Shown: positions 23,515 through 46,035 of the stretch, piece after piece | Numbering within the stretch: position 1 is the stretch's first letter | Layout: every line of letters begins with the position of its first letter | Assembly: GCF_001468035.1 (NCBI RefSeq) | Contig: NZ_LNZA01000001.1 | Location: 1,900,231-1,964,230 of the forward strand | Reading direction: 5' to 3' | DNA: 64,000 nt | DNA from: Legionella tucsonensis | GTDB taxonomy: Bacteria > Pseudomonadota > Gammaproteobacteria > Legionellales > Legionellaceae | Position numbers and translations under genes: made by a program | Notes under the pieces: model-generated | Told to the model about the DNA's origin: nothing | What the model saw: only the letters and a program-made list of their open reading frames with translations | The model's database searches: none

Positions 23515-24468
23515 TCACTCAAAATTATTGTTTGAATAATCAACAACTTGAAGTTCATGCTCTCGATTTAATAAGCTGTCCGGTACTCTGCCTGTGAATT
23601 GATTATGATCAAGTCGTAGGACTTGCAGGTTAGGGATGTTTCCAATGTCAGCAGGGATCGTACCTTCCAACGCGTTATGTTCAACGCGCAATGTTTTAAG
23701 AAAATGAAGTTTTGTGATTGTATCCGGAAGGATACCACTGAATTGATTGTGCCCTAGATAAATATGTTCCAATTGCATTAACTGTTCTATCTTAGTGTTT
23801 ATGGAACCTGAAATGTGATTATTAAATAAATAAATTTCTTTTAAATTCTGAAGCAGATAAAGAGAATCAGGCAGGATACCATTCAGCTCATTATCATCAA
23901 GCCGTAAAATTTCAAGTTGATGTAAATTTCCGATGGATGATGGGATGGCTCCCGATAATTTATTGACATGTAAATCAAGCCATTTCAAGCTTTCAGCTTC
24001 ACCAATACTGTCAGGAATCTCTCCACTAATCTGATTGGATTTAAGCCAAATGTTTTCAAGTTTTTTGCATTGACCAATCGTCGAAGGAATCTGCCCCCCG
24101 ATGTGATTAAAGCTTAAATAAAGTGTTTTCAGCTCTGTTAAGTTACATAGTGTATCTGGCAATGAACCCTCTAAGCCATTGTCATAAAGCTGCAATTCAG
24201 TAACATGCCCATTTTTATCACAAATTACTCCATGCCATTCACAGTATGAGATGGAATCAGAAAGCCAATTATCTTGCCTAATCCAATTTGACCCGTTAGT
24301 TGCTTTGTAAAAATTCTCAAGTTCTAATCGTTCTTGTGGATAATTTGCATCTGCAAAAAGAGCGTTTGAAATTAACATTGCTGCTATTCCAAAAAAGAAT
24401 ACTTGTTTACGAGATGATTTTAGCAACCTATGAATGGTATTGAAAAAGGAATGAATTGTTATTGGCAT
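23515..24468 (-). CDS. Secreted plant-type leucine-rich-repeat protein
   Basis: 317 residues from the ATG at 24468 (AAGAGAG upstream); a TTG at 24483 is unlikely. A signal-peptide-like helix (VFFFGIAAMLISNALFA) is followed by an LRRNT_2-like cap (NGSNWIRQDNWL; YCEWHGVICD). Nine 24-residue repeats and part of a tenth then follow, of the plant pattern LxxLxLxxNxLxGxIPxxIG (LDLHVNKLSGAIPSSIGN). This IP-x2-IG form is the plant receptor-kinase class, different from the repeats of bacterial internalins. Probably exported and binding a protein partner. The repeat spacing is regular throughout, so the gene is under selection. Eukaryotic acquisition is inference. Confidence 0.85.
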   Translation of the reverse strand: MPITIHSFFNTIHRLLKSSRKQVFFFGIAAMLISNALFADANYPQERLELENFYKATNGSNWIRQDNWLSDSISYCEWHGVICDKNGHVTELQLYDNGLEGSLPDTLCNLTELKTLYLSFNHIGGQIPSTIGQCKKLENIWLKSNQISGEIPDSIGEAESLKWLDLHVNKLSGAIPSSIGNLHQLEILRLDDNELNGILPDSLYLLQNLKEIYLFNNHISGSINTKIEQLMQLEHIYLGHNQFSGILPDTITKLHFLKTLRVEHNALEGTIPADIGNIPNLQVLRLDHNQFTGRVPDSLLNREHELQVVDYSNNNFE

Positions 24469-24682
24469 TGAACTCTCTTGCAAATCATTTTAGTCAGTGT
24501 AAATATTAAACAATTTAATGTCAAATAGGTAGGGCATGTTTACAATTTAGTTAGGTCTAACGGTGAGAATACAATTTTTCTAATATTGCGTTCAGAGTTT
24601 GGCAGCGGTACATTAAATACATAGGACCGTTGTAAATGGATGTGAATCTTGCAAAATAACACATCAAATCGGATGAAAAACC

Positions 24683-25540
24683 ATGCATAAAATAATTAGT
24701 GGCGATATGATAGGCATTGGTTTAAGAGCCCCACATTATGATCAAATATTAGAAAAAAAACCTGCGATTGACTGGCTTGAAGTGCATACAGAAAACTTCC
24801 TTTTAAAAGGAGGCCCATTATTAGAGCTTCTATTTTCCATAAGTCAGCATTATCCACTAAGCTTTCATGGAGTGGGATTATCTCTAGGCTCAGCCAAAGA
24901 AATCAGCAAAGAACATTTAAAACGAATTAAAACCCTCATTGATCGCTTCGAGCCTGTTTTCCTTTCAGATCATTTGTCATGGAGCAACGTAGGGAATACC
25001 TATTTGCCGGATTTATTACCCATTCCCTATAACGAAGAAAGTTTAACGATTATCACCAATAACATTGATAATGTACAAAATTATTTACAGAGAACCTTAT
25101 TAATAGAAAACCCAGCTTCTTATTTAGAGTATCGAGCTTCAACCTATGAAGAACCTGAGTTTCTAGCAGAAATAATCAAACGCACAGGCGCTAAATTGTT
25201 ATTGGACGTTAATAATGTTTACGTTTCTTATTCAAATAATAAACGAGATCCGTATCAATATATTCAAAAAGTACCTCACAAAGACATACAAGAAATTCAT
25301 GTAGCAGGACATTCTATTTCACTGCAAAATCAAAGGAATATCTTGCGGATAGATACACACAATGATCATGTCTGCCAGGAAGTATGGGATTTATATCGAT
25401 ATACTATAAATTACACTGGCCTTGTTCCAACTTTATTAGAATGGGATTCAGAAATACCTCATTTGGAGGTTTTAATCAATGAAGCAAAAAAATCAACTCA
25501 TTACGCCTACAATTCAACAAATACAGGAAGCTTTTCTTAA
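24683..25540 (+). CDS. MNIO-family (DUF692) iron enzyme, bufferin-modifying BufB type
   Basis: 285 residues forming a TIM-barrel of the multinuclear non-heme iron oxidative enzymes, relatives of MbnB and TglH. Expected metal ligands are visible: FHGVGLSL (His62), SDHLSW (Asp96, His97), IENPASY (Glu142), LLDVNNVYV (Asp175, Asn178), His206, DTHNDHV (Asp224, His226), LLEWD (Glu253). Such enzymes rebuild cysteines of small peptides into oxazolone/thiooxazole-type heterocycles. No precursor peptide gene is found in the 200 bp upstream, so its substrate must be encoded elsewhere; two candidates lie at 27.7 and 32.4 kb. A DUF2063 partner gene overlaps its 3' end by 62 bp. Confidence 0.88.
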   Translation: MHKIISGDMIGIGLRAPHYDQILEKKPAIDWLEVHTENFLLKGGPLLELLFSISQHYPLSFHGVGLSLGSAKEISKEHLKRIKTLIDRFEPVFLSDHLSWSNVGNTYLPDLLPIPYNEESLTIITNNIDNVQNYLQRTLLIENPASYLEYRASTYEEPEFLAEIIKRTGAKLLLDVNNVYVSYSNNKRDPYQYIQKVPHKDIQEIHVAGHSISLQNQRNILRIDTHNDHVCQEVWDLYRYTINYTGLVPTLLEWDSEIPHLEVLINEAKKSTHYAYNSTNTGSFS

Positions 25541-26312
25541 AGGTGTATTCAATAAACAAGATGTCGCTATTCAGGAGCAATTTTGTCAAAATGAAATTGC
25601 TCCTGAATTTCGTTTTAGTGTTTATCGTAATACCATTTTACAAAACCTGCGTAACTCTTTAGAAGTAACTTTTCCATCAACCTGGAAATTGGTTGGAAAA
25701 GTATGTGCTGATGCTTTGGCTCTAGCGTTTGTCCAAGACCACAGTAATTTACCAACAACTAATTGCTTAGACGATTGGGGTGAAAAATTTCCCGCTTTTT
25801 TACAAAATAATGAAGCGGTTAAACATCTTCTTTATCTAAAAGATATTGCAGAAATAGAATGGTTAAGGCATTTAAGCTATTGCTCGCAAGATTATCTTGT
25901 TCTTGATTCCAGAATACTTCAAAAACATCTAAATAATTCCGTGGATAAATTATGTTTGATATTTAATCCGTCGGTATTTTTATATTCATCTCCCTATTAT
26001 TTAAAAAATATCTTTGAGTTGATAGAAAATCCAGTTGAAATAGACTTCATAAATTTTCAGCACTTACCGAGTTATGTCGTGATAGTACGTCAAAAAAATC
26101 AGGTATTAACCCATTGGATTACTAAGGACCTGTTTACTTTTCTATCTTATTTAAAAGATAAAGTGACGCTTGAGCAATCATATGAAAACACTTTAGAAAA
26201 CAATCCGGATTTTGATTTGTTTTCCGGTTTACAATTTTTATTGAAAAATGAACTATTAGAATATTGTTCTATCTATCCGCTCCCCCAGGGTCATGGTTCG
26301 GATTGTAGTTAA
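25479..26312 (+). CDS. DUF2063 partner protein of the MNIO enzyme (BufC type)
   Basis: 277 residues. The N-terminal half has the DUF2063 'putative DNA-binding' pattern (IQEAFLKGVF; FRFSVYRNTILQNLRNSLEVTFP; LVGKVCADALALAFV). In MNIO systems this partner supplies a precursor-recognition element to the enzyme, so DNA binding is not expected. GGAGG sits at 25465-25469, inside the preceding gene, and fixes the ATG at 25479. The last dozen codons lie inside one arm of an 18-bp inverted repeat, so the C-terminus (LPQGHGSDCS) may be derived from that repeat instead of being ancestral sequence. Confidence 0.85.
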   Translation: MKQKNQLITPTIQQIQEAFLKGVFNKQDVAIQEQFCQNEIAPEFRFSVYRNTILQNLRNSLEVTFPSTWKLVGKVCADALALAFVQDHSNLPTTNCLDDWGEKFPAFLQNNEAVKHLLYLKDIAEIEWLRHLSYCSQDYLVLDSRILQKHLNNSVDKLCLIFNPSVFLYSSPYYLKNIFELIENPVEIDFINFQHLPSYVVIVRQKNQVLTHWITKDLFTFLSYLKDKVTLEQSYENTLENNPDFDLFSGLQFLLKNELLEYCSIYPLPQGHGSDCS

Positions 26313-26340
26313 ACTGAGCCGCGACTCTGAGGGAGCGGAT
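26275..26340 (+). repeat. Imperfect 18-bp inverted repeat overlapping the end of the DUF2063 gene
   Basis: ATCCGCTCCCCCAGGGTC and GACTCTGAGGGAGCGGAT pair with two mismatches around a 30-bp centre. The left arm codes for the last residues of the DUF2063 protein. It may be a REP-like element or a large terminator stem. Confidence 0.6.
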
Positions 26341-26343
26341 AAT

Positions 26344-26363
26344 AAATCCAGAGGGATTTTTTT
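26344..26363 (+). terminator. Terminator after the MNIO/DUF2063 pair
   Basis: AAATCC-AGAG-GGATTT followed by a run of Ts forms a short rho-independent-type signal between convergent gene rows. Confidence 0.5.
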
Positions 26364-26381
26364 ATAACAAATTACGTTATT

Positions 26382-27689
26382 TTACAAAGCCACTAAATCC
26401 AGAGGACCTTCCACCCCCCCCACATGTCTTGCCTTAAGCTCTTCTTTAGGTACATCGCTCCTATACCCTTGTTTTAATGCTTCTACAAAAGTATTCTTGG
26501 TAGTCAAAGCTTGAGTTTTTTCTTCTTTATTATGTTTTTCCAGCTTGGCTGCTAAATTGGCCGTTTCTCCAATTACTGTATATTCCAAACGATTTTCATA
26601 ACCGATCACACCAACTACCACTTCACCAGAAGCCAGCCCAATTCCTACGCCAACTACTATATCTCCCTTTTGACGTCGATTTTCACTCCATACCATTATT
26701 GATGATATGATTTCATCGACCGTTCTTAAGGCATCAGCGGCATAAGTATTTGAGGGAGCCACAGCACCAAAACTTGCCAAGATACCATCCCCCATAAACT
26801 TATCAATACTTCCATTATTTTTTTGAATAATTGGTACAACCAAATGCTGATATTCACCCAATAGTCCAATCAATTCACTAGGAGACAAATTTGTTGATGC
26901 TTTGGTAAATCCTCTCATATCAATAAACATAATAGCAGCCTGGCGTAACTCACCATACCCCGCTTGTAATGATTTTTCAGAGGTCGTTATTTTTTCTACA
27001 ACACTTGTATCAAAAAACCGAGATAAATCTTTTGCAGCACTGGTCTGCTCCACTGCTTGAAAAAGAGTGCGCTTGGCACGCGTCAATACCAAAGCAATAA
27101 TTACTGTTACTAGTAAGACTGACAAAATGACATCAAATACAGCACCCAAATAAACACTCCGACTTGATGCAAAGGTTACATAATCCCATGTAATAACATT
27201 CATCCCTGAACTGGATAAAGTTTGCCAAACGATAATACTCCACCCAATGGCTGCCGTAAGCCCTGAAAGTATGACCCATAGAGGTTCAAACCGAAGTGCA
27301 CGTAATGCAATCAAAATATAAACGTAATTAATATGGGGGTTTTTAAGATTAATGGTCGGTGTTGTTTCAAACTGCAGATAATAAGTCCATATAATAAATA
27401 ATAACAAAGCCATTTCAGCAACTATGGAGAAACCAAGAAATATTGAATTCAATTGATTAGTATAGACAAACCACAATCTTGCTAATATTAAGATAGTAAA
27501 TAACCACAAGCCTAAGGAAGAGGATTGAACAGGTGCGCCAGGAGAATATCCTGCTGAAGAAAAGAAATTGATAATACTTAATAGTACTATAACGCCTAAT
27601 TGCACACCAGTAACCAATAATTCACCCGTGTACTGTTGGGCTTCTATCTCTTTCCTGACACGAATAGGCAACTTAGAGTAACTATACAC
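26382..27689 (-). CDS. Membrane class III adenylate/guanylate cyclase
   Basis: 435 residues, GTG start at 27689. About six hydrophobic helices (30-200) precede a cyclase homology domain (250-420). The metal-binding aspartates are in MFIDMRGFT (Asp257) and DKFMGDGIL (Asp301); Lys297 is the purine-selecting lysine. In the VIGETANLAAKLE segment the usual transition-state arginine of N-x3-R is a lysine (Asn378, Lys382), so activity may be reduced or altered. The start overlaps the stop of a bufferin-like peptide gene by 8 bp, with GGAGGAAGGA inside the peptide's last codons, implying translational coupling. Confidence 0.88.
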   Translation of the reverse strand: MYSYSKLPIRVRKEIEAQQYTGELLVTGVQLGVIVLLSIINFFSSAGYSPGAPVQSSSLGLWLFTILILARLWFVYTNQLNSIFLGFSIVAEMALLLFIIWTYYLQFETTPTINLKNPHINYVYILIALRALRFEPLWVILSGLTAAIGWSIIVWQTLSSSGMNVITWDYVTFASSRSVYLGAVFDVILSVLLVTVIIALVLTRAKRTLFQAVEQTSAAKDLSRFFDTSVVEKITTSEKSLQAGYGELRQAAIMFIDMRGFTKASTNLSPSELIGLLGEYQHLVVPIIQKNNGSIDKFMGDGILASFGAVAPSNTYAADALRTVDEIISSIMVWSENRRQKGDIVVGVGIGLASGEVVVGVIGYENRLEYTVIGETANLAAKLEKHNKEEKTQALTTKNTFVEALKQGYRSDVPKEELKARHVGGVEGPLDLVAL

Positions 27690-27954
27690 TCCTTCCTCCC
27701 ACTATACGTTCACACAATCCTTTAGGCAACATGATAAAAGCTTCTGGGTCACGATCCATCGTTGATTGTGAGGCACAAGAATGTAGAGAAGTGGCACAAT
27801 CATTTTTTCCCGCGCGTGCCACGTTATAACAGCGCTCTCGTTTTACAACTATTTCTTTTGACGAAAGCCAATCGGTATACGTATATACGGAGGCAAGAGC
27901 AGCTCCTAAAGCAGCTGCAATTACTGTCGTATTTTGTACCTGACGTTTATTCAT
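27682..27954 (-). CDS. Second bufferin-like four-cysteine peptide (DUF2282-type)
   Basis: 90 residues from the ATG at 27954; a TTG at 27966 is the other option. A short hydrophobic stretch (VIAAALGAALASVYTY, residues 11-26) could be a membrane anchor or a signal peptide cut after ALA. The rest is a bufferin core: RCYNVARAGKNDC, SLHSCAS, MLPKGLCERIVGG. Cys42, 53, 60 and 81 have exactly the same spacing (11, 7, 21) as the canonical peptide at 32.4 kb. It has no adjacent MNIO gene on its strand and overlaps the cyclase gene. Either a modified copper-binding peptide or a sensor feeding the cyclase; both are inference. Confidence 0.82.
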   Translation of the reverse strand: MNKRQVQNTTVIAAALGAALASVYTYTDWLSSKEIVVKRERCYNVARAGKNDCATSLHSCASQSTMDRDPEAFIMLPKGLCERIVGGRSV

Positions 27955-27990
27955 ATTATTTTCCAACTGTTTTTAGAATGATTTCCCATT

Positions 27991-28755
27991 CTAAGCTAAA
28001 TAATCTGCGACAACTTCTCCATAAGGCAATGTTAAATCGGTGATAAAATGTGAAACGGATACAATTTTTTTGATATAAAGATTGGAAATAGGAGCCAATG
28101 CATGTGGATGAAGCTCCAGACTACCTGGTCCCGTCCATGCCCCTTTCACCGTCACGTCTGTTAAATAAGTCTTAGTCAATTGATTAATTAAAGGAGTACC
28201 ATCTACATCAGGAACATTTTTAAGTAAAAAGACCGGTTTTTTTACCGACTCCAAAACCTTTTCCGCATCTAATGGGCGATGTTTATATCCCATTGTCGCA
28301 ATAGCAATATCAATACTCCCATACTTAAGAATACCAATGAGTGTGTCTTCTTCAACAAACAATTTTGGTTTGGCCAGTTTTTTTGGAAAACCCCATATTT
28401 CTCGACCACCAGCAATAGGAGCATGGCAATCAAGGAACATCGAAATAGTAAATCCTCCTTCTTCACCTTTATATCTCACCGGCACAACTTGACCTGATTC
28501 AGTGTAATCACCAAATCCAGTTGAATCAGGCATGCGGATAAATTCAAATTTAACTACCGGCTCTATTAACTCCATATCAGGAGGAAGAATGGCTTTCAAA
28601 AGTTCTGGATCGGTTTCATAAGATATAATAAAAAATTCGCGGTTATTAAATCGATAAGGGCCCGCTGGATAAGTATTTAGCCAACGAGGAACCGGCATAT
28701 TAAATTCATTATTGATAATACTCTCTGAAGAATTAGCAGCAAATTTCTTGTCCAT
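27991..28755 (-). CDS. Acetoacetate decarboxylase-family protein
   Basis: 254 residues. It has the ADC barrel and the active-site stretch REIWGFPKKLAKP, where Lys125 or Lys126 would form the Schiff base, with the upstream GGFTISMFLD segment. The classical reaction is acetoacetate to acetone and CO2, but many relatives act as aldolase-like enzymes on other substrates. GGGAG precedes the ATG. It sits 79 bp after the DoxX-NADH dehydrogenase gene and 36 bp before the bufferin-like peptide gene, all on the minus strand, so it belongs to the same transcription unit. Its role beside a metal-peptide system is unexplained. Confidence 0.88.
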   Translation of the reverse strand: MDKKFAANSSESIINNEFNMPVPRWLNTYPAGPYRFNNREFFIISYETDPELLKAILPPDMELIEPVVKFEFIRMPDSTGFGDYTESGQVVPVRYKGEEGGFTISMFLDCHAPIAGGREIWGFPKKLAKPKLFVEEDTLIGILKYGSIDIAIATMGYKHRPLDAEKVLESVKKPVFLLKNVPDVDGTPLINQLTKTYLTDVTVKGAWTGPGSLELHPHALAPISNLYIKKIVSVSHFITDLTLPYGEVVADYLA

Positions 28756-28834
28756 TAGTCCACTCCCTTTATATTTCCTTATAATCTTAACAAGATTAAA
28801 TTAATCTCGAATTCCCCGTAAGCCCTCAAACCAA

Positions 28835-31045
28835 TTAACTTGCTCCTGATTTATCTCCTGTCTTCAACGAATCATCTGTAATAAGTAAATTATTGGCGCG
28901 AAAAGTATAATAAGACCAAAGCCAATTTAAAATAACACTTAAACGATTTCGAGAGCCAACCAGAAAAAAGACATGCACCCCTCCCCAAAACCACCATGCA
29001 AGTTCTCCGCTGATTTTAAAGTTATTAAACTCCGCAACAGCCGCTTTACGGCCAACAGTAGCAAGACTCCCCAAATGAACGTATTTAAAAGGTTTATATT
29101 TTGATTGGTTATTATAAATCCTTTTAGAAATTACATTAGCCACATAAACACCCCCTTGTTTTGCAGCAGGCGCAATACCAGGTACTGGTTTACCTTTCCA
29201 GGCATTTGAAGCAGCGGTATCGCCTATCACAAAAATATTTGAGTAATTAGTTACTGTCAGATCGTCATTCACTTTGACACGGCCTGCTGGATCAGCTTCT
29301 ACTTGAAGCCATTTTGCTGCCGGAGAAGCAGCAACACCCGCCGCCCAAAAGACTGATTTTGAATAAATTCTTTCATTATTAATAATCACACCATCGCCAT
29401 CAATTTGCTCAACCATACTATTCACTAATACTTTGACACCCATACTTTCTAAAAAGCTCTGTGCTTTTGCCGAGATTTTTTCCGAAAAAGTGGGCAAAAT
29501 CCGAGGCGTTGCCTGAACCAGGATAATATTTGCTGACGAGGGATCAAAATGACGAAATTCTTTTACGATTCCAAATCGTGCAAGTTCCACTATTGCCCCA
29601 GCAAGCTCAACACCAGTAGGTCCTGCCCCCACAATGACGAAATTTAGCAATTGCTTGCGTTCTTCTTCACTTTGAGCAAGTTCGGCTAGTTCAAACGCTC
29701 TAATGATGCGACTACGCACTGAGGTACCATCATTAATTGTTTTTAACCCTGGCGCATAAGGAGTCCAATTATCCTTACCAAAATAACTATGAGTTGCGCC
29801 TGTCGCTATCACCAAATAATCGTATGGAATTGTAAAATTATCAGCTATAACGAGTCGCTCCTCTTTATTAATATCTGAAACATCTCCCAATAATATTTCC
29901 ACATTAAATTGCTCTAAAAATATGGAGCGAATCGAAATAGCAATATCAGCTGGCGAGAGACTTCCAGTAGCAATCTGGTATAAAAATGGCTGAAAAAGAT
30001 GATAATTATGTCTATCAATCAAAGTGATTTTGACTGGCATATGACGTAATGTTTTAGCGCAAGCAATACCCCCAAACCCTGCGCCAATAATAACTACGCG
30101 TGGTAAGTTATCCAGGCTAAATGCCGGTTTACCAGAAAGCTGTGGATAATATTTCTTCAAAGCATTAAAAATCAAATGATCCAATGATAAGGTTCCTGGA
30201 CCTGAAACAAATAAAATGGCCATCACCATCACCCAGTATAAATAAAAACCCGTTACTTCTGGGGTAAAACTAAAAAGAACAACGATTAATCCCAGAGCTG
30301 CAGCAAATCGGGTAGCAAAACCAAACCCCAAAAAAAGAGCAATAAATAATGAAAAATGGCTAAAAACAATTGATACCGAACTTAAAGGTAACCACGACAT
30401 AAGCGGTTGCAACTTGTCAGGAGAAATTATTTCGACATATTGATTAACTAGCAAAAGTGAGATCATTAACCAAATACGTATAAGAAATAAAAACAAGCTT
30501 GAAAAAAATCCTCTTGTTTTCTCTACAAGAGTCACAATCGACATAGCAAATGGCAAAGGACTGCGTCTAAACCCTTGTTCGAATAAATTATCCAGAGAAA
30601 GCGGACCTGGTCCTCTCAACACATAGCCCAACATTAATGTGATCCAAAGCAAATTAAGATCTATGGGTTGATAATAAATTTGGGTCATAACAGCGAATAC
30701 TGCAATAACCGCTGCCCCGCATCGGGTAAATAAACCAAAAAAAAGGGAAATACCGCCAACAAATTGTGCCAATATTCCTAACAGAGCCCCCGATTCAGGA
30801 GATAACCATGGAACTGGATATTCATTTTTGGCTAAATAAACTGCAGTATCCCAATGGTTAGCCAAAAGAATCGCAGAGACTAATACTTGCTGTGCTATCC
30901 ATATTCGAAATGCCAAATCAATAACAGGCCATCCAATCCGTCCAAGAAAGTCAACAAAATCGGTAAAGATGTCAAAAAACCTTGCCACGTTTCTTGAGAA
31001 GGTACTGTTTTTTTGAGTTGTCGATACCTGATTTGCTTGTTGCAT
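28835..31045 (-). CDS. DoxX-DoxX-NDH-2 fusion: membrane-anchored type II NADH dehydrogenase
   Basis: 736 residues. Two DoxX-type four-helix units occupy about 45-155 and 185-295; both end with GPG(P/T)LSLD(N/H)L. A type II NADH:quinone oxidoreductase follows, with the FAD motif VVIIGAGFGGIACAKTL (GxGxxG at 321-326) and the NADH motif FVIVGAGPTGVELAG. It should pass electrons from NADH to quinone at the inner membrane without pumping protons. DoxX is also the fourth component of bufferin operons; the separate DoxX of the operon at 34.3 kb shares the N-E-Y-x-V-P and GPGxxSxD features. The fusion is unusual. Confidence 0.88.
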   Translation of the reverse strand: MQQANQVSTTQKNSTFSRNVARFFDIFTDFVDFLGRIGWPVIDLAFRIWIAQQVLVSAILLANHWDTAVYLAKNEYPVPWLSPESGALLGILAQFVGGISLFFGLFTRCGAAVIAVFAVMTQIYYQPIDLNLLWITLMLGYVLRGPGPLSLDNLFEQGFRRSPLPFAMSIVTLVEKTRGFFSSLFLFLIRIWLMISLLLVNQYVEIISPDKLQPLMSWLPLSSVSIVFSHFSLFIALFLGFGFATRFAAALGLIVVLFSFTPEVTGFYLYWVMVMAILFVSGPGTLSLDHLIFNALKKYYPQLSGKPAFSLDNLPRVVIIGAGFGGIACAKTLRHMPVKITLIDRHNYHLFQPFLYQIATGSLSPADIAISIRSIFLEQFNVEILLGDVSDINKEERLVIADNFTIPYDYLVIATGATHSYFGKDNWTPYAPGLKTINDGTSVRSRIIRAFELAELAQSEEERKQLLNFVIVGAGPTGVELAGAIVELARFGIVKEFRHFDPSSANIILVQATPRILPTFSEKISAKAQSFLESMGVKVLVNSMVEQIDGDGVIINNERIYSKSVFWAAGVAASPAAKWLQVEADPAGRVKVNDDLTVTNYSNIFVIGDTAASNAWKGKPVPGIAPAAKQGGVYVANVISKRIYNNQSKYKPFKYVHLGSLATVGRKAAVAEFNNFKISGELAWWFWGGVHVFFLVGSRNRLSVILNWLWSYYTFRANNLLITDDSLKTGDKSGAS

Positions 31046-31157
31046 ATAAAAATCCTTTTCAAAAAAGTTTTAAAAAATTCCTGTATTTCTAATAAATTTG
31101 GATTTAATTATAGCCACGAATTTAAATTATGTTGCGAACCATTGTTTTTACTTAAAG

Positions 31158-32183
31158 TTACAAGTATTCCTCAAGATCGATACTTGTCATTTTCCCAAGG
31201 TGCTTAAAATTTTCCTTTAACCATTCAGTTCCCTTGCTACGTCCCTCCTCATAAAGATGCTTGATAAACGACCACTCCGGATTTAATTTACTAGCCACTG
31301 TAGAAGATTGCATTGATACATCAGCACGAATTGCATGAATATAAAGTTTCTTAAGGTTATTTTTATACTCTTCTTTAATCCAACCACTGTCTATTAATTT
31401 AGTTACAAAAGCAATTGCCCGCATTTCACGCATTAATGAAGAATTAAAACTAATCTCATTGACTCGATTTAGAATTTCAGTTGCGGTTTCAGGAACGTGC
31501 TCACGATAAATGGGATTGATATGAAGAATTAAAATATCCCTGCAGTCGGAATTATAAATTAGAGGAAAAATGGCTGGATTTCCCATGTAGCCCCCATCCC
31601 AAAAAAAATCCTTCCCAATATTAACGGCTTGAAACATAAAAGGGAGACAAGTCGAAGCCATAACAGCATCTACTGAAATTTTTTTATTATCAAATACATT
31701 AATTTTACCTGTTTGAACATTAGTAGCAGAAACAAAAATTTTAATACTTTTGCAAGATTTGATTTTTTCAAAATCCACGGTTTTCTCTAAGATTTCTCTA
31801 AGTGGATTAAAGTTAAGAGGATTAAATTGATAGGGAGAAAGAATTTTGGTCATAAGGTCAAATATAAAATAGGACATTGAATTTTCAATTCCTACACCAA
31901 GCAGCTCTTCTAACGGAGTTTTTTTGAGTGGATTGTATATTTGCCCTGCATCACTAACCATCTTCCAAAATTGATGTAACGCTTCTCGAGCCCCTTCATT
32001 ACCTCCCGTTGCCAATCCATGGGCAAGTACTGCGGCATTCATTGCTCCGGCACTGGTTGCGGAAATAGCATCAAAACTCACCCGACCATCTTCAAGAAAC
32101 CTATCAATAATGCCCCAGGCTAGAGCACCATGAGCACCACCTCCTTGTAAAGCGAGGTTAATCATTTTGGTATCCTTTACCAT
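31158..32183 (-). CDS. Patatin-like phospholipase
   Basis: 341 residues. The oxyanion motif GGGAHG (14-19), the nucleophile elbow ATSAG (Ser44) and the dyad DGG (Asp196) are all present, so it should be a catalytically competent lipid acyl hydrolase. There is no signal peptide. It starts the minus-strand row that continues into the DoxX-NADH dehydrogenase gene 112 bp later, and it is divergent from the bufferin operon with 222 bp in between. In this genus some patatins are secreted effectors, but this compact form with a full dyad may equally be an intracellular enzyme. Confidence 0.9.
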   Translation of the reverse strand: MVKDTKMINLALQGGGAHGALAWGIIDRFLEDGRVSFDAISATSAGAMNAAVLAHGLATGGNEGAREALHQFWKMVSDAGQIYNPLKKTPLEELLGVGIENSMSYFIFDLMTKILSPYQFNPLNFNPLREILEKTVDFEKIKSCKSIKIFVSATNVQTGKINVFDNKKISVDAVMASTCLPFMFQAVNIGKDFFWDGGYMGNPAIFPLIYNSDCRDILILHINPIYREHVPETATEILNRVNEISFNSSLMREMRAIAFVTKLIDSGWIKEEYKNNLKKLYIHAIRADVSMQSSTVASKLNPEWSFIKHLYEEGRSKGTEWLKENFKHLGKMTSIDLEEYL

Positions 32184-32351
32184 AATAAAATACTCCTCTT
32201 CCTTTAAGTATGATTTATTAAAGTATAAGGTAAAGATCCAAGAAATGTTTTCTATTTTAAGTTGAGCAATAAATGTCTACAATCCTTTTCTCAATTTTTT
32301 AGAAATTCAATGTATCCTGTAATAAATTAAAAATGATACTATACTAATTAC

Positions 32352-32369
32352 GTTATTTTATTAAATAAC
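32352..32369. promoter_or_regulatory. Palindrome in the bufferin operon promoter region
   Basis: GTTATTT-TATT-AAATAAC is a perfect 7-bp inverted repeat 36 bp before the bufA start, in the divergent region shared with the patatin gene. It could be an operator; the AT-rich surroundings make chance palindromes common. Confidence 0.35.
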
Positions 32370-32405
32370 ATATGGATTAATCACATATAACAAAGGATAT
32401 GCATT

Positions 32406-32660
32406 ATGAATAATATTTCTAAAATAACAATGGCTGCCGTTATGGCCGCCGGACTTTCAATTGCGACAATTCCAGCTAATGCCGATACTCCAAATGATAT
32501 GGAAAAATGCCAAGGTGTGGCTAAGGCTGGCAAAAATGATTGTGGTACTGCTCAACACGCTTGTGCCGGTCAATCTAAAGCAGATGGCTCAGAAAAAGAC
32601 TGGATTTACCTGCCCAAAGGTACTTGTGAAAAGCTTGTTAACGGAACAGTTAAAAGCTAA
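32406..32660 (+). CDS. bufA: Bufferin precursor peptide BufA (DUF2282)
   Basis: 84 residues. A Sec signal peptide (ITMAAVMAAGLSIATIPANA, cut after ANA) is followed by a mature peptide with four cysteines: EKCQGVAKAGKNDC, QHACAGQ, YLPKGTCEKL (Cys35, 46, 53, 74). This is the bufferin signature: cysteines are converted by an MNIO enzyme and the exported peptide buffers copper in the periplasm. AAAGGA precedes the ATG. The MNIO gene begins 5 bp after the stop, then the DUF2063 partner and DoxX, making a complete operon. Copper regulation is expected from the family but no operator was proven here. Confidence 0.9.
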   Translation: MNNISKITMAAVMAAGLSIATIPANADTPNDMEKCQGVAKAGKNDCGTAQHACAGQSKADGSEKDWIYLPKGTCEKLVNGTVKS

Positions 32661-32665
32661 GTAGA

Positions 32666-33535
32666 ATGGCAAATAATAATTCTATTAATCAAGCCGCGTG
32701 TTTTTCCGGATGTTCCGGCATTGGACTGCGGCTTGAACATATAGACGACATCTTAAATCGACAGCCCTCTGTCGATTATTTTGAAGTTCTCGCTGATAAT
32801 TATATCCAGCACTCAGGAATTCAATTTAAGCAATTACTAAAAATTGCAGAATTTTATCCACTGAGTTTACATAGCATTGGATTATCAATTGCCACATCCT
32901 CTGAACCAGATTATCAATATTTGAAACAAATAAAGGATTTAGCTCGTTGTATGAATTCCAGCCTGATATCGGATCATCTCTGTTGGACTCATGCCAACAA
33001 ATTTTTTACTCATGAGTTAGTTCCATTCCCTTATACTGAGGAAACGTTATTATTCATCATTGAAAAAACAAATCGAGTCCAGGAATATCTCAACCAGGCA
33101 ATCATGTTTGAGAACGTTTCACGCTATGTAAGCTACCAGCAAAATACTTTAACCGAAGCTGAATTCCTTAATGAACTGAGCACAAAAACAGGTTGTGGAA
33201 TTTTATTGGATGTTAATAATTTATATGTGAACTGGTATAACCATAACGACGATCTGGACAAATACCTCCAATCAATTAATGCCAAACACGTCTGGCAGAT
33301 GCATCTTGGCGGCTTTTCAAAACAAGAGGGTTATTTACTGGATAGTCATAGCGATAAAGTTTATCAAGATGTTTGGCTGCTTTATGAAAAAGCTCAAAAC
33401 CTCTTTGTAAATACCCCCACAATCATCGAGTGGGATAATAATTTACCTGATTTTTCTCTCTTATATGAAGAAATGTGTAAAGCAAAAGCCATAATAAAAC
33501 GAGTAGCAGAGAGGAGCCTGAATCATTATGCGTAA
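32666..33535 (+). CDS. bufB: Bufferin-modifying MNIO enzyme BufB (DUF692)
   Basis: 289 residues. Iron-ligand motifs of the family are LHSIGLSI (His69), SDHLCW (Asp103, His104), FENVSRY (Glu149), LLDVNNLYVNW (Asp182, Asn185), MHLGG (His213), DSHSD (Asp226, His228), IIEWD (Glu255). It modifies cysteines of the BufA peptide in the cytoplasm before export. The gene is 5 bp after bufA and overlaps bufC by 8 bp. Compared with the other MNIO in this window (24.7 kb) the ligand set is the same but the sequence is clearly different, so the two are paralogues and not a recent duplication. Confidence 0.92.
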   Translation: MANNNSINQAACFSGCSGIGLRLEHIDDILNRQPSVDYFEVLADNYIQHSGIQFKQLLKIAEFYPLSLHSIGLSIATSSEPDYQYLKQIKDLARCMNSSLISDHLCWTHANKFFTHELVPFPYTEETLLFIIEKTNRVQEYLNQAIMFENVSRYVSYQQNTLTEAEFLNELSTKTGCGILLDVNNLYVNWYNHNDDLDKYLQSINAKHVWQMHLGGFSKQEGYLLDSHSDKVYQDVWLLYEKAQNLFVNTPTIIEWDNNLPDFSLLYEEMCKAKAIIKRVAERSLNHYA

Positions 33536-34307
33536 TACTCTCCTTGAGACGATTCAGCAGGAATGGATAGCGCAGTTTAGAAAAGAAGTTCAGTCAAATC
33601 AGTTATCCAATCGGTTCACTCCATCAAGATTTGATGGTATTGGTGTGTACCTCGAAAGCCATCATGCCACTTTATTTAATCATTTGAAATCAACCTTTCC
33701 ACTCTGTTTGCGTTTAGTGGGCGATTCTTTCTGGTATGCTTTATTGCATCGTTACATTAATATTCATCAATCCACTCAATACGATATCAATCAATACGGT
33801 GATAGCCTCCCTCAATTTATTGCTCATTTTGAGCCAGCTAACGCAGTACCATACTTATATGAATTAAGCACCATTGAGTGGCATTGGCATACATTAAAGA
33901 GTATCTCACCCGCATGCTCTTTTGATTTTGAATCCTTTTCGCATCTAGATGATATTGGCTTTCAATCCTTATGTTTTCATCTAACACCAGGTTTAAAAAT
34001 ACTCAGTTCTGAATACCCTATTTACCAAATTTGGGCCATGAATTACTTTCAGGAAGAGAAAGAAATTCAAATATCAGGCTGTCCTGAAAAAGTTGTTATT
34101 TATCAACATAATGATTTATCCTGTATTATGCTAATCAGTAAGGAGGAATATCTTTTTCTGGAATTTTTATCCTCTGGAAACCAGATAACATGGCAAAAAG
34201 CAGTAGCTGAATTAAGTAAATGGATTAACGAAGAGAAAATTGGTGATCTTTTAACTAAAGCTCTTCGCTATCAATGGATCAATCGTTTTTCATTGGAGGC
34301 TATATGA
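33528..34307 (+). CDS. bufC: MNIO partner protein BufC (DUF2063)
   Basis: 259 residues. It has the N-terminal DUF2063 pattern (RFDGIGVYLESHHATLFNHLKSTFPLCLRLVG) in the same arrangement as the partner at 25.5 kb, then a C-terminal winged-helix-like part thought to recognise the precursor (EEYLFLEFLSSGNQITWQKA). It works as a subunit of the BufB modification complex. It overlaps bufB by 8 bp and its TGA overlaps the DoxX start (ATGA), so the operon is tightly coupled. Confidence 0.88.
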   Translation: MRNTLLETIQQEWIAQFRKEVQSNQLSNRFTPSRFDGIGVYLESHHATLFNHLKSTFPLCLRLVGDSFWYALLHRYINIHQSTQYDINQYGDSLPQFIAHFEPANAVPYLYELSTIEWHWHTLKSISPACSFDFESFSHLDDIGFQSLCFHLTPGLKILSSEYPIYQIWAMNYFQEEKEIQISGCPEKVVIYQHNDLSCIMLISKEEYLFLEFLSSGNQITWQKAVAELSKWINEEKIGDLLTKALRYQWINRFSLEAI

Positions 34308-34768
34308 AAACATTTATAGCAAAAACTTATTTATTGGCTGACAAATTCTTTGATTTCCTTGCCCCAATATTCATTCTCGTGACTCGACTTTATCTTGCTC
34401 AGGTTTTTTTCCTGTCTGGATTAACAAAAATAAGTAATTGGCAAGCGACACTTTTCTTGTTTCAAAACGAATACATGGTACCTATCATATCACCCACTTT
34501 CGCTGCCTATCTTGGAACAGCTTGCGAATTAGGTTTTCCTGTATTAATTGCATTAGGCATAGGTTCCAGAGCCGTTTTATTTGCGCTATTCCTATTTAAT
34601 TTATTCGCCGTTTTCTCCTATAAATTTTTATGGACGCCGGACGGAGCTGTCGGTCTTACCGATCACATGCAATGGGGTATAATGATTTTAATGCTTCTAT
34701 GTACTGGTCCCGGGAAGATATCGATTGATTATTTAATTAGACGATTTTATTTGAAATTAGATAAATAA
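34304..34768 (+). CDS. DoxX-family membrane protein of the bufferin operon
   Basis: 154 residues from the ATG at 34304, chosen because GGAGG lies at 34295-34299 and the start overlaps the bufC stop (ATGA). Four hydrophobic helices; DoxX signatures are VTRLYLAQVFFLSGLTKI near the start and LMLLCTGPGKISIDYL near the end. DoxX proteins are inner-membrane partners in redox or metal peptide systems and are the usual fourth gene in bufferin operons. A clear hairpin terminator follows. Confidence 0.88.
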   Translation: MKTFIAKTYLLADKFFDFLAPIFILVTRLYLAQVFFLSGLTKISNWQATLFLFQNEYMVPIISPTFAAYLGTACELGFPVLIALGIGSRAVLFALFLFNLFAVFSYKFLWTPDGAVGLTDHMQWGIMILMLLCTGPGKISIDYLIRRFYLKLDK

Positions 34769-34823
34769 TTAAGCTTTGGGAAGAAAAGTAAGCCTCTTAA
34801 CCTTCAGTATTAAATGTATTTCG

Positions 34824-41472: not shown

Positions 41473-42457
41473 GTGATTTTAATACTGCATTACACGAAGA
41501 AAATGCTCAATTTAAGCAGCAATACCTGCGTGTACTAGAACAATTTAAATTAGCGCAACAACGACACCTTGCCCGTTCGTCTGAATCGAATATCCTGCAA
41601 ATGGAATTGCAATTTGATGAAGCAGAAGCCGTTCTCCCAGAAGAATTACCGCAAGAAGACAACACCGTCACCGTGACTTACACGCTTCACATTGCCTGCC
41701 GCTTTACCACGCGAGGTCATTGAGCACGATATTCCTGAGCAAGGATAAACACTGTGCTTGCGGTTGCAGAAAGCAGCGTATTGGCGAGGAAGTCACTGAG
41801 CAATTAGAAATCATTCCAGCACAACTGAAAGTTATTGCCCATATACGTCGCAATCGCTGCGACGACGGCGTGAGCATTGCACCCATACCTACACTCTTTC
41901 TATCAAAGAGTATGGCCACACCCAGTTTAGTGGCTCACACCCTGGTCAGTAAATACCAAGACCATTTGCCCCTCTATCGACAGGAGAAAATCTGGCAACG
42001 CTTAGGCGTTGAGATGCCTCGCAATACAATTTGTAGTTGGATAATGAATGCAGCCGAAGTTTGTATGCCTATGCGAGAAGCTTTAATCAACACCTTACTT
42101 GCATCAGATTATATTCAGGCCGACGAAACAACGCTGCAAGTGATGGGTGAGGACAATCGAAAAAATACCTCAACAGTTTCATGTGGGTTTATAAAAGTGC
42201 CAAGCCTGATAAACCAGTCATTTTTTTGATTACCGCCAAACAAGACAAGCCTGTTGCTGAAAGAAATCTTGCATGAATTTAAAGGCTATCTGCAAACCGA
42301 TGGCTATAGTGGGTACGACTGGCTTGACGATAACCCAAACATCATTCATTCAGGCTGTATGGCACATGCTCGCCGTCCTTTTGCTAAATTGGTTAAGCTG
42401 GCTAAGACCACCGGCAAGTCGCTAATCAGTGCAATCCTTTTGACTATCTTCGGATAG
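41473..42457 (+). pseudogene. IS66-family transposase (TnpC) remnant with several frameshifts
   Basis: Pieces of one transposase are spread over three frames: a coiled N-terminus (QQYLRVLEQFKLAQQRHLAR), then at 41720-42229 HCACGCRKQRIGEEVTEQLE, LPLYRQEKIWQRLGVEMPR and IQADETTLQVM, then at 42254-42457 FKGYLQTDGYSGYDWL and GCMAHARRPFAKL. These are the IS66 zinc-finger and DDE segments in the right order. No TnpA/TnpB accessory genes are seen, and the C-terminus is missing. Inactive. Confidence 0.85.
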
Positions 42458-42739
42458 CTTTTTGAAAATATCCTATTCTGTAAATATCAGGACGATTATA
42501 TCCAATTACTTCCTTTCAATAGTAATTTAAACAATCCCTAAAATCCTATCTGTAGTTGGCAGAACGCATACCTTAACACAGGCAAAACTCAGGTCTACAA
42601 TGGCTTGATTACAATCAATATGATAATATATAAATCGATTAGACATAAATTGGATAATAAAGTTTTTCCTGCTCGTAATTAAAACCTCAAGAGATTGTTG
42701 ATTATTATACAAATTTATAAATTATTTCAGGAGTAAACA

Positions 42740-43975
42740 ATGCAATCAAAACGTGACCGCTTTTTTGCAAACGACCAACCAACTGCATCAGAGGCAGGGG
42801 TTAATTTACCAGCATTGAGCGATCTTGATCCAATAATTAGAGAAAAGGAGTTGCCACCGGATGATCATCGTTGGGAGGCAAATAAGAAACGGGCTTCAGA
42901 TGCTCGAACAGAAGTGGGTACAGGCGACAAACTCTGTACAGACGACATTGCACAGCCAATCATAAGTGAGGGATTTACTTCTTGTCGACCATTCATAATA
43001 GTTAACGTGGATACCCAAAATACTATTTTTCTCCATTGTAACAACAAACTAACGATAAGACAGGCTGCACTATTGTATTTTTTCCTTCAAGAAGAGGGTA
43101 ATAAGCAAGGAGTATATTTGAAGAAGGGGAGCCTACCAGGCTTTTCGATGCCTACTTTCGTACAATATCTTAAGGAAAGGGTAGAAATGAAATCAATAGG
43201 ATTTCGGAATTTTTGCGACGTAATCTTTTTGCCCAAAGAAGGATGTATCCTAAGACGTTCTCATAGGAGTAATACGATTTTGGAAGATAGGCCTTTTGAT
43301 AGTTCCTATTATTCTGCCCTTGAAAAAGGGCATGTTAAATCAAAAGAATCAATTGAAAAACAAGCGGAAGAATTTGTAGCGAACTGGGAGCGAGGTGAGC
43401 AATTAAATAAGGCATTATATCCTTTAGTTAAAAATAAGAATGTTGGTGAGATAAAGAATCTCTTGAGGGATTCAGGTAAAAATATTTCCCAGATTATTAA
43501 ACCGAATATTTATGATCTGCTTAATTATGAGGAAAGAAAAAGTTTTTCTAATTATAGCAGTCATAATTTGAATTTTTCACGTCTTATTAGATTAGTTACT
43601 CTAGACCTAGATGGAGGTAGAATTGATAAACATTGTTTGACAAAAGAAGGGCTGCAAAAATCGCTAGAATGTTTTAAGCTGCTTGATGACTTGCTTTTGC
43701 AAGCTGGAAACATAGACGAGTCGCATAGCTTTTTTATAGCATCTGTTAATTTAATTGAGGAAATTGCTGAAAATAAAAAGTATACCCATCTAATGGAATG
43801 CCAGGAATTTACAGCGCTGGTCGAGTTTACGAGAAAATCAGCTACTGATTCTTCAGATAAAAAACGGCTGGAAGAAGTAGAATTAAAGGCGAATATTATG
43901 AAATCCAAATTTGAGAAGTTTGATGAATTACCAACAGAGCTTCAATTCGAAACAGACAAAGTTTATCAACCATGA
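42740..43975 (+). CDS. Hypothetical protein, candidate secreted effector
   Basis: 411 residues, not recognised. CAGGAG 7 bp upstream fixes the ATG. There is no signal peptide or membrane helix. The N-terminal 75 residues are polar and probably disordered; 75-200 look like a mixed alpha/beta domain (PFIIVNVDTQNTIFLH); the rest is alpha-helical. The last 60 residues are rich in Glu and Lys (KKRLEEVELKANIMKSKFEK) and end in a hydrophilic tail, which is what Dot/Icm secretion signals look like. It lies alone between IS remains. The effector proposal is inference. Confidence 0.55.
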   Translation: MQSKRDRFFANDQPTASEAGVNLPALSDLDPIIREKELPPDDHRWEANKKRASDARTEVGTGDKLCTDDIAQPIISEGFTSCRPFIIVNVDTQNTIFLHCNNKLTIRQAALLYFFLQEEGNKQGVYLKKGSLPGFSMPTFVQYLKERVEMKSIGFRNFCDVIFLPKEGCILRRSHRSNTILEDRPFDSSYYSALEKGHVKSKESIEKQAEEFVANWERGEQLNKALYPLVKNKNVGEIKNLLRDSGKNISQIIKPNIYDLLNYEERKSFSNYSSHNLNFSRLIRLVTLDLDGGRIDKHCLTKEGLQKSLECFKLLDDLLLQAGNIDESHSFFIASVNLIEEIAENKKYTHLMECQEFTALVEFTRKSATDSSDKKRLEEVELKANIMKSKFEKFDELPTELQFETDKVYQP

Positions 43976-44030
43976 TTTAGCAAACCTTTCTATGACATCA
44001 AGAGAGCATTTGGCTTTATTTAAACCTATG

Positions 44031-44114
44031 ATCCTAGAAAAAGCAGTTGAGTCCTACTGCGCAAGCTAATGGCACTGAATATGCTCGCTACGGACTCAAC
44101 TGCTTTTCTAGGAT
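44031..44114. repeat. 84-bp palindromic element
   Basis: ATCCTAGAAAAAGCAGTTGA and the following GTCC at the left pair with GGACTCAACTGCTTTTCTAGGAT at the right, leaving one unpaired base. The centre is about 37 bp. It lies 55 bp after the hypothetical gene's stop. It may be a strong hairpin terminator without a T-run, or a miniature mobile element. Confidence 0.6.
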
Positions 44115-44193
44115 GAATTGATATTTGTAAATTATTGCATCATGTGGCGCGCGGGGAACATGAAGCGGTTGAAGCAATGTTAAAGTAAAGACA

Positions 44194-45348: not shown

Positions 45349-45360
45349 AGAGTTAAGGTT

Positions 45361-45520
45361 TTGTGTTCTTGATTATTTGCCCCCGGAAATGGGGAAGAGC
45401 CCGATTTAGCCATGGATGGCTTAAATCTATCACGAGCTTAGCGACACAATCGTTAGTGCAGTGAGAGAGTAGTCAATTATTTGTGTTCTTGATTTAGGCC
45501 CCCGTAATTGGGAAAGACCC
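45361..45520. repeat. Two direct copies of an ISL3-type end, 120 bp apart
   Basis: TTGTGTTCTTGATT followed by a GCCCCC..AATGGG.AAGA.CC block occurs at 45361-45401 and again at 45481-45520. A third block of the same type closes the ISL3 remnant at 45844-45867. They look like ends of nested or partly deleted ISL3 elements. Confidence 0.6.
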
Positions 45521-45560
45521 AGCTATTTATCAATTTCAGCAACAACTGCACTCACTATTA

Positions 45561-45867
45561 ATGAAAAGGGCATTAACACAGCATGAGTGCCGTAAAGTAA
45601 TACCTACTTTCTTAGACATGTTGTCTGAGTTAAAGCAAAGTGGTTTTAAAGCATTAGCCTCATTAGGTAAAACACTGTGTACTTGGAAAGATGAAGTGGC
45701 CAGAATGTGGCGATTTAGTAAATCAAATAGAATAACAGAAGGCTTTCATCGCAAAATGAAACTCATTCAGCGAAGGGCTTATGGTTTTAGAAATTTTGAA
45801 AATTATAGAGTACGTGTTAGGGTGCTCTGCGGGTGATTAAAGCTGCCCCCTTAAATGGGAAAGAGCC
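45561..45867 (+). mobile_element. ISL3-family element, right part (C-terminal transposase fragment plus end)
   Basis: The frame at 45561-45836 encodes the end of an ISL3 transposase (LGKTLCTWKDEVARMWRFSKSNRITEGFHRKMKLIQRRAYGFRNFENY, the Glu helix being NRITEGFHRKMK). The element end follows at 45844-45867 (GCCCCCTTAAATGGGAAAGAGCC). Amino-terminal and central parts are missing. Orientation is the same as the left half at 37.3 kb. Confidence 0.75.
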
Positions 45868-45958
45868 GTAATTTTTTACAAGTACACCTAGCAGAATTTT
45901 TTATTTTTTATGGGTTTAACTAAGAAGATGCAACTGACTGATTTCAAAGGGGATTTAT

Positions 45959-46035
45959 TGGTCGGGACGGAAGGATTTGAACCTTCGACCACTAGCACCC
46001 CATGCTAGTACGCTACCAGGCTGCGCTACGCCCCG
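45959..46035 (-). tRNA. tRNA-Pro (anticodon GGG)
   Basis: The complement folds as a complete 77-nt tRNA: acceptor CGGGGCG / CGTCCCG with discriminator A and encoded CCA, D-arm GCGCAGCCTGGTAGCGT, anticodon arm CTAGC-ATGGGGT-GCTAG (anticodon GGG), and T-arm GAAGGTTCAAATCCTTC. The 3' end faces the IS-rich island, the usual side for integration at tRNA genes. Confidence 0.95.

What the first reader, a model, noticed from the sequence alone, without database searches (positions are those of the whole stretch)
24683..34768. Two MNIO/bufferin sets in one 10-kb neighbourhood, one complete and one dispersed
Seen: two DUF692 enzymes with full metal-ligand sets, each followed by an overlapping DUF2063 gene; two four-cysteine DUF2282-type peptides with identical Cys spacing (11, 7, 21); a DoxX gene and a DoxX fusion. 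Known: bufferin operons (bufA-bufB-bufC-DoxX) make modified copper-protecting peptides. The 32.4-34.8 kb set is canonical. The 24.7-26.3 kb enzyme pair has no precursor of its own, while a spare precursor lies on the other strand at 27.7 kb. Inference: a second, trans-acting pathway in which the orphan pair modifies the 27.7-kb peptide, or both enzymes share substrates.
Basis: partly seen in the sequence, partly recalled or inferred. Interest (0 to 1): 0.9.

Follow-up and report, generated by a model that had tools for sequence, protein, structure and literature searches.

The report
Bufferin enzymes tied to adenylate cyclase
In Legionella bacteria a pair of peptide-modifying enzymes that seems to lack a peptide sits facing a gene unit made of a copper-binding-type peptide and a membrane signalling enzyme, and in the genomes examined the intact pair was not found without that unit, which suggests a chemically modified peptide that may tell the cell about metals.

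Summary
In detail: two MNIO/DUF2063 pairs and two DUF2282 peptides lie in 10.1 kb. The layout is already in print for L. pneumophila (clusters H2 and H4, PMC5413113). The shared 11-7-21 cysteine spacing is family-wide and proves nothing. That peptide overlaps by 8 bp a class III adenylate cyclase with six predicted membrane helices, and lies beside it in all 18 genomes with this cyclase. It lacks the cleavage motif of secreted bufferins and looks membrane-anchored. The orphan enzyme is a bufferin maturase whose nearest relatives have precursors of another cysteine spacing (17/18-7-20), so relocation alone does not explain it. Five genomes keep the peptide-cyclase unit without the pair. The whole block looks horizontally acquired. 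Best reading: the pair modifies the anchored peptide, which acts with the cyclase, perhaps as a metal sensor. Module: strong. Modification: likely. Sensing: speculative.

The parts
24683..25540 (+). orphan bufferin maturase (MNIO, oBufB)
   Evidence: PF05114 335 bits; NCBIfam MNIO_BufB 363 bits, cut-off 310; 13 orthologues form one clade, SH-aLRT 100
25479..26312 (+). orphan DUF2063 partner protein (oBufC)
   Evidence: PF09836 64 bits; 62-bp overlap with oBufB
26382..27689 (-). class III adenylate cyclase with six predicted N-terminal membrane helices (AC)
   Evidence: PF00211; AlphaFold helices; best Foldseek matches are cyclase domains, and Rv1625c/Cya 7yzk aligns over 402 columns but at a low TM-score of 0.32
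27682..27954 (-). DUF2282 bufferin-type peptide with a probable uncleaved N-terminal anchor (pepAC); 8-bp overlap with AC
   Evidence: PF10048 80 bits; alignment of 17; cleavage-motif comparison
27991..28755 (-). acetoacetate decarboxylase family protein; neighbour, not constant
   Evidence: PF06314; seen within the fetched regions of 8 of 13 module loci, own window included
28835..31045 (-). DoxX-NADH dehydrogenase fusion; lies beside a canonical set in another genus
   Evidence: DoxX + Pyr_redox_2; divergent from the canonical set in L148
31158..32183 (-). patatin-like phospholipase; neighbour
   Evidence: PF01734
32406..32660 (+). canonical bufferin precursor (cBufA) with AxA-type cleavage motif
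   Evidence: PF10048 82 bits; motif counted in its orthologue L066
32666..33535 (+). canonical bufferin maturase (cBufB)
   Evidence: PF05114 310 bits; NCBIfam MNIO_BufB 307.9 bits, cut-off 310
33528..34307 (+). canonical DUF2063 partner (cBufC)
   Evidence: PF09836 49 bits
34304..34768 (+). canonical DoxX
   Evidence: PF07681 51 bits
24672..34777 (.). probably horizontally acquired 10.1-kb block holding all of the above
   Evidence: 81-82% DNA identity to G034 over exactly this stretch and no match outside it in the 19.9 kb compared; backbone at 47-62 kb is 89-93% identical to G019, G004, G017, G001 and 68-77% to G034 in pieces over 700 bp

Best explanation
The 24.7-28.0 kb part is a four-gene module: oBufB-oBufC facing a translationally coupled pepAC-adenylate cyclase unit. 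Shown, in the genomes examined: peptide and cyclase always lie together, the intact maturase pair occurs only beside them, and all four genes are under purifying selection. Inferred, likely: oBufB with oBufC oxidises cysteines of pepAC in the cytoplasm (thiooxazoles, by analogy with bufferin 1). pepAC then inserts by an uncleaved N-terminal helix with its four-Cys domain in the periplasm. Inferred, speculative: the modified domain binds copper or a similar metal and regulates the six-helix cyclase that is made with it, so that periplasmic metal is reported as cAMP. The canonical bufABC-DoxX set in the same block is an ordinary copper-buffering system that travels with the module. My confidences: module 0.95, modification of pepAC by oBufBC 0.65, regulation of the cyclase 0.35.
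For: Co-occurrence: the pair is present in 12 of 45 genus genomes (own included), all with pepAC convergent at 2034-2683 bp, plus G138 of another genus; 0 genomes have an intact pair without it; Fisher p 2e-7, not corrected for kinship. On the rpoB tree (43 of 45 genomes) pair and pepAC go together in a mean of 5.7 of 7 independent comparisons and never oppositely, median p 0.031, range 0.031-0.063. AC at >=59% identity occurs in 18 of 143 family genomes, each time beside pepAC (a broken copy in G138). G041 keeps only an N-terminal remnant of oBufB and no oBufC, AC or pepAC at the locus: joint loss. In G039 pepAC is the only DUF2282 found in the genome. oBufB passes the NCBIfam BufB cut-off; dN/dS 0.06-0.19 for the four genes between G000 and G034. 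pepAC: 4 Cys and T27, W29, S31 invariant in 17; 7 of 16 distinct N-termini have no AxA-type site and 9 have one only inside the hydrophobic stretch, against 35 of 35 other DUF2282s with such a site. Precedents: a copper-switched adenylyl cyclase (PMC4626032, abstract) and 6TM anchors as receptors (PMC4821796, abstract).
Against: Five genomes (G001, G004, G019, G032, G035) keep pepAC with all four Cys and the cyclase (broken in G001) without the pair, so the pair is dispensable there or replaced. The enzyme's sister lineages have precursors with spacing 17/18-7-20, pepAC has 11-7-21. The module may simply be inherited as a block: in the window genome it seems to have arrived with about 7 kb of other genes. 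The cleavage-site argument is a motif count, not a trained predictor, and the pepAC model is poor (pLDDT 59). All 16 aligned pepAC-linked cyclases have Lys where class III enzymes usually have an Arg (motif recalled), so activity is unproven. Metal binding, modification and cAMP effect are all untested.
Confidence: 0.5

Rival explanations
1. pepAC is just another copper-buffering bufferin that happens to be cotranscribed with a cyclase; oBufBC modifies it, but no signalling is involved.
For: DUF2282 family membership and conserved four Cys; sharing an operon with other genes is common, e.g. a DUF2282 gene followed by YceI, cytochrome b561 and YceI genes in L073.
Against: The 8-bp overlap with the cyclase is the longest-ORF call in 10 of 16 alignable loci and is available in the other 6; cyclase and peptide were not found apart in the 18 genomes with this cyclase; the N-terminus differs from secreted bufferins.
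Confidence: 0.3
2. The maturase pair acts on something else, and pepAC works unmodified as a structural or sensing partner of the cyclase; linkage is inherited gene order.
For: Peptide and cyclase persist without the pair in 5 genomes; enzyme lineage and pepAC type do not match; oBufB evolves faster than pepAC and AC between G000 and G034 (79% against 87-89% identity).
Against: No intact pair was found without pepAC; flanking genes vary while the four-gene order stays; joint loss in G041; no alternative conserved Cys-rich ORF nearby.
Confidence: 0.25
3. Shared substrates: both maturases of the block modify both DUF2282 peptides.
For: Same Cys spacing; a 2025 survey proposes that one complex may serve several precursors (PMC12452194, Discussion read).
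Against: Spacing is family-wide; oBufB and cBufB are only 37% identical and lie in separate branches; among the 45 genus genomes the canonical set was seen only in G000 and G034 while the orphan pair is in 12.
Confidence: 0.1

Closest known systems
L. pneumophila gene clusters H2 (lpg0665-0669) and H4 (lpg0671-0676), homologues of the gold-induced GIG operon (PMC5413113, section 14 and passages read)
   Same: Same gene content as this block: canonical DUF2282-DUF692-DUF2063-DoxX, then DoxX-NDH, decarboxylase, DUF2282, adenylate cyclase, DUF2063, DUF692
   Different: The section describes H4 as a cluster rather than an operon and offers no role; conservation of the pair with the peptide-cyclase unit, the anchor and the transfer are not in the parts I read
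Buf1 bufferin clusters (PMC12452194, abstract, sections 14 and 21 and passages read)
   Same: DUF2282 peptide, MNIO, DUF2063 partner; the survey notes precursor genes without MNIO and suggests modification by enzymes encoded elsewhere, or none
   Different: Here the precursor gene faces the enzymes, is coupled to a cyclase and lacks a clear signal-peptidase site
Rv1625c/Cya-type six-helix class III adenylyl cyclases (PMC4821796, abstract)
   Same: Predicted six membrane helices followed by a cyclase domain; Foldseek match 7yzk over 402 columns
   Different: TM-score of that match is only 0.32; a separate small Cys peptide is made with the cyclase here; Lys in place of the usual catalytic Arg (recalled motif)
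Copper-stimulated YHS-domain adenylyl cyclase of Mycobacterium phlei (PMC4626032, abstract)
   Same: Idea of a copper sensor on a cyclase
   Different: There the sensor is a domain fused to the cyclase; here it would be a separate, modified, periplasmic peptide

Membership tests
Buf1 bufferin cluster (orphan pair + pepAC) | MNIO of the BufB type | tested here: met
   363 bits against cut-off 310; nested among MNIOs most of which have an adjacent DUF2282
Buf1 bufferin cluster (orphan pair + pepAC) | DUF2063 partner protein | tested here: met
   PF09836 over cut-off; HvfC model not reached (32 of 142 bits)
Buf1 bufferin cluster (orphan pair + pepAC) | DUF2282 precursor with four Cys | tested here: met
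   PF10048 80 bits; four Cys invariant in 17
Buf1 bufferin cluster (orphan pair + pepAC) | Precursor gene directly upstream on the same strand | tested here: not met
   Convergent, 2157 bp away
Buf1 bufferin cluster (orphan pair + pepAC) | Cleavable Sec signal peptide on the precursor | tested here: inconclusive
   No AxA-type site in 7 of 16 distinct N-termini and only in-helix sites in 9, against 35 of 35 others with one; no trained predictor available
Buf1 bufferin cluster (orphan pair + pepAC) | Cys-derived thiooxazoles that bind copper | not testable with these tools
   Needs mass spectrometry
Buf1 bufferin cluster (canonical set, 32.4-34.8 kb) | bufA-bufB-bufC-doxX on one strand | tested here: met
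   cBufB is 2 bits under the NCBIfam BufB cut-off
Class III adenylate cyclase | Cyclase domain over curated cut-off with both metal-binding Asp | tested here: met
   PF00211 51.6 against 21.9 bits; D257 and D301 invariant in 19 (role of these residues recalled)
Class III adenylate cyclase | Transition-state Arg (N-x3-R motif, recalled) | tested here: not met
   NLAAK in 16 of 16 aligned pepAC-linked cyclases, Arg at that place in the 3 unlinked homologues
YHS-type copper-sensing adenylyl cyclase | YHS domain on the cyclase | tested here: not met
   Only PF00211 found

The most novel reading that the evidence does not exclude
A RiPP used for signalling instead of buffering: an MNIO-modified, membrane-tethered bufferin is the metal-sensing subunit of a six-helix adenylate cyclase, with its own dedicated maturase pair recruited from another bufferin lineage.
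Probability: 0.25. Interest if true: 0.85.

Novelty: new variant of a known kind. Interest (0 to 1): 0.58.

Why it matters
Bufferins are known as copper buffers. Here a bufferin-type peptide is locked to a second-messenger enzyme, and a maturase pair is locked to that unit. If the link is functional, post-translational heterocycles would serve as a sensor element for cAMP signalling in an intracellular pathogen genus that meets copper in amoebae and water pipes. It also gives a clean example of a maturase whose precursor gene is not in its own operon, a question that the 2025 survey left open.

Tried and rejected
Considered and dropped: identical Cys spacing as evidence of shared enzymes (family-wide). 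A hidden precursor beside the orphan pair: the small Cys ORFs conserved downstream lie where the convergent cyclase gene is, on its opposite strand, and the upstream ones recur only in close sister loci. The orphan pair serving the other DUF2282 peptides of the genus (no association). The DoxX fusion as part of a second set (in G111 it sits divergent from a canonical set). A pepAC-cyclase unit outside the family: 4 non-family genomes of 369 drawn from the class (G000 among the 369) had a cyclase homologue at E <= 1e-40, none with a DUF2282 in the surroundings fetched, at most 1.5 kb a side (G234's gene lies at its contig end, so one side is unseen). No pepAC-like peptide at 60% identity or more among 91 plasmid records matched; the best one lies in a record with almost no annotation and was not pursued. 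The pepAC structure model was too poor to use beyond the N-terminal helix. A DUF2282 tree was not built: the core is about 50 residues.

Limits: names of G genomes are not given; G034 is taken as L. pneumophila only because the positions of its three clusters match those printed for strain Philadelphia 1. G027 and G035 had no rpoB match and are not in the species tree. G138 is a badly broken assembly (neighbouring genes broken too), so its broken genes say nothing about decay. The list of backbone matches was cut. 'Not in print' rests; subscription papers, including the original bufferin paper, were not seen.
Full report
What is there. The window lies at G000:C1:1900231-1964230 of a 3.36-Mb genome. 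Between 24,672 and 34,777 lie eleven genes. On the plus strand are oBufB-oBufC (24683-26312) and cBufA-cBufB-cBufC-DoxX (32406-34768). On the minus strand are a patatin-like protein, a DoxX-NADH dehydrogenase fusion, an acetoacetate decarboxylase, the DUF2282 peptide pepAC and an adenylate cyclase. The labels oBuf, cBuf and pepAC are mine. The Cys spacing 11-7-21 is shared by 159 of 170 DUF2282 frames whose spacing could be read in my collected loci, some of them overlapping copies, so it carries no special weight.

Other maturases in the genome. Two further MNIO genes lie elsewhere, each after its own Cys-rich precursor. The precursor of L001 passes the NCBIfam BufA2 cut-off at 84 against 60 bits; that of L002 does not, 37 bits. 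So only one of the four MNIO genes has no precursor gene of its own, and no conserved small Cys ORF was found beside it. The genome has two DUF2282 genes, both in the window.

In 45 genus genomes (own included) I searched DUF2282 and oBufB. Twelve have an oBufB orthologue at 61-100% identity. In all twelve the order is oBufB> oBufC> <AC <pepAC, with the DUF2282 frame 2034-2683 bp away and convergent. Five more genomes (G001, G004, G019, G032, G035) have pepAC-AC without the pair, and tblastn finds no remnant of it there. G041 has a 99-residue N-terminal remnant of oBufB with the other three genes gone. No genome has an intact pair without pepAC. In the family scan (143 genomes) one more appears, G138 (by its contig L. 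tunisiensis), again convergent. Fisher p is 2e-7 uncorrected. The other DUF2282 genes of the genus, meaning those that are neither pepAC nor members of the canonical or 17-7-20 sets, show no association with the pair (10 of 12 against 26 of 33, p = 1; genomes classed by hand). On an rpoB tree of 43 of the 45 genomes, pair and pepAC change together in a mean of 5.7 of 7 independent comparisons and never oppositely, median p 0.031, range 0.031-0.063.

The peptide-cyclase unit. AC orthologues at 59% identity or more occur in 18 of the 143 family genomes, each beside pepAC (the AC of G001 and both genes of G138 are broken); two more distant homologues (G111 39%, G027 28%) also passed the threshold and are not counted. 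pepAC and AC overlap by 8 bp; this is the longest-ORF call in 10 of 16 alignable loci, and in the other 6 the same start is available but a longer frame exists. The AC is predicted to have six N-terminal helices before the cyclase domain. Its best Foldseek matches are cyclase domains; Rv1625c/Cya aligns over 402 columns, but at a TM-score of 0.32, so the shared six-helix layout rests on the helix count. Homologues outside the family were seen in 4 genomes of the 369 drawn from the class, with no DUF2282 in the fetched surroundings.

The peptide itself. In 17 orthologues the four Cys and T27, W29 and S31 after the hydrophobic stretch are invariant. By a simple motif count, 35 of 35 other DUF2282 proteins have an AxA-type site, against 9 of 16 distinct pepAC N-termini, and those 9 sites lie inside the hydrophobic stretch. 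The model shows one N-terminal helix, residues 3-26, at low confidence. I read it as an uncleaved signal anchor; this is an inference.

The enzyme's origin. A tree of 129 MNIO sequences puts all 13 oBufB in one clade (SH-aLRT 100), nested among enzymes most of which have a DUF2282 gene directly upstream. Of the 74 further distinct MNIO rows drawn from the 80 best GTDB loci, 60 have DUF2282 directly upstream and 14 have none there, 3 of these 14 at a contig end; the five oBufB-clade loci L161-L165 show the convergent arrangement. The closest relatives with a readable precursor have spacing 17-7-20 or 18-7-20 (L048, L049, L166), not 11-7-21. So oBufBC was probably recruited to pepAC, or does not act on it; it is not just a broken-up operon. 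Metal-ligand positions (H62, E142, D175, N178, H206, D224, H226, E253; roles recalled) are invariant in the alignment of 13. The eleven block genes compared with G034 show dN/dS 0.03-0.19.

The block moved. The stretch 24672-34777 is 81-82% identical in DNA to G034, and nothing outside it matches in the fetched 19.9 kb. The genome's backbone at 47-62 kb matches G019, G004, G017 and G001 at 89-93% in pieces over 700 bp but G034 at only 68-77% (list cut), and rpoB agrees. The DoxX fusion and the canonical set match another genus (G111) at 87-90%. So the two sets most likely came as one mobile block, direction unknown. This weakens co-occurrence for this lineage but not for the others, whose outer neighbours differ.

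What is known. PMC5413113 (section 14 and passages read) lists this layout in five L. pneumophila strains as H2 and H4 and calls H4 a cluster rather than an operon. PMC12452194 (abstract, sections 14 and 21 and passages read) names DUF2282 peptides Buf1, notes precursor genes not linked to MNIO genes, singles out L. pneumophila subsp. fraseri for its many copies, and leaves open whether such precursors are modified from elsewhere; the word adenylate does not occur in its main text. A full-text search for DUF2282 with adenylate cyclase returned only PMC5413113. PMC4626032 and PMC4821796 were seen as abstracts, PMC12668002 as passages. PMC12452194 reports, as preliminary, that the signal peptide is part of what BufB-BufC recognise, which would fit an anchor that keeps that segment.

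Judgement. The orphan pair and the peptide-cyclase unit form a real module. That the pair modifies pepAC is likely. That pepAC senses metal for the cyclase is an attractive but untested idea. Against it stand the five genomes without the pair, the mismatch of precursor type and the altered catalytic residue in the cyclase (motif recalled).

Noticed in passing
L102 4104-7792, L152, L153, L154, L155; compare L073 15464-17508 and L081: A second DUF2282 peptide type is followed by YceI, cytochrome b561 and YceI (Pfam checked in L073 only; genes of like size or sequence elsewhere). In G043 and four genomes of other genera an MNIO-DUF2063 pair of another enzyme branch lies directly upstream; in most of the genus loci mapped that pair is absent there, so precursors and maturases seem to have been separated more than once.
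   Followed up: partly
L167, L168, L170, L171, L173, L174: Alphaproteobacterial MAGs carry MNIO-DUF2063-DoxX sets closely related to the orphan lineage but with no DUF2282 detectable in the fetched stretch (L173 is cut by the contig end).
   Followed up: partly
window 26382-27689: All 16 aligned pepAC-linked cyclases have Lys where the three unlinked homologues have Arg in the N-x3-R motif (role recalled); this may mean a weak or conditionally active cyclase.
   Followed up: partly
L002 1052-1378: The precursor of another MNIO of this genome is a KNGCKG-type repeat protein that weakly hits collagen-like repeat models.
   Followed up: no
L073 9551-12035: In G008 a Cys-rich precursor and its MNIO-DUF2063 pair lie directly upstream of pepAC-AC on the same strand, so that genome has two maturase pairs beside the unit.
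   Followed up: no
window 41720-45959: What look like transposase genes (41720-42229 and 44219-45268, judged by eye) lie to the left of a tRNA-Pro gene; with stress and transport genes further left this looks like a genomic island border.
   Followed up: no
window 23515-24483: A leucine-rich-repeat protein with a probable signal sequence (judged by eye) sits right beside the block edge and is not part of the stretch shared with G034.
   Followed up: no
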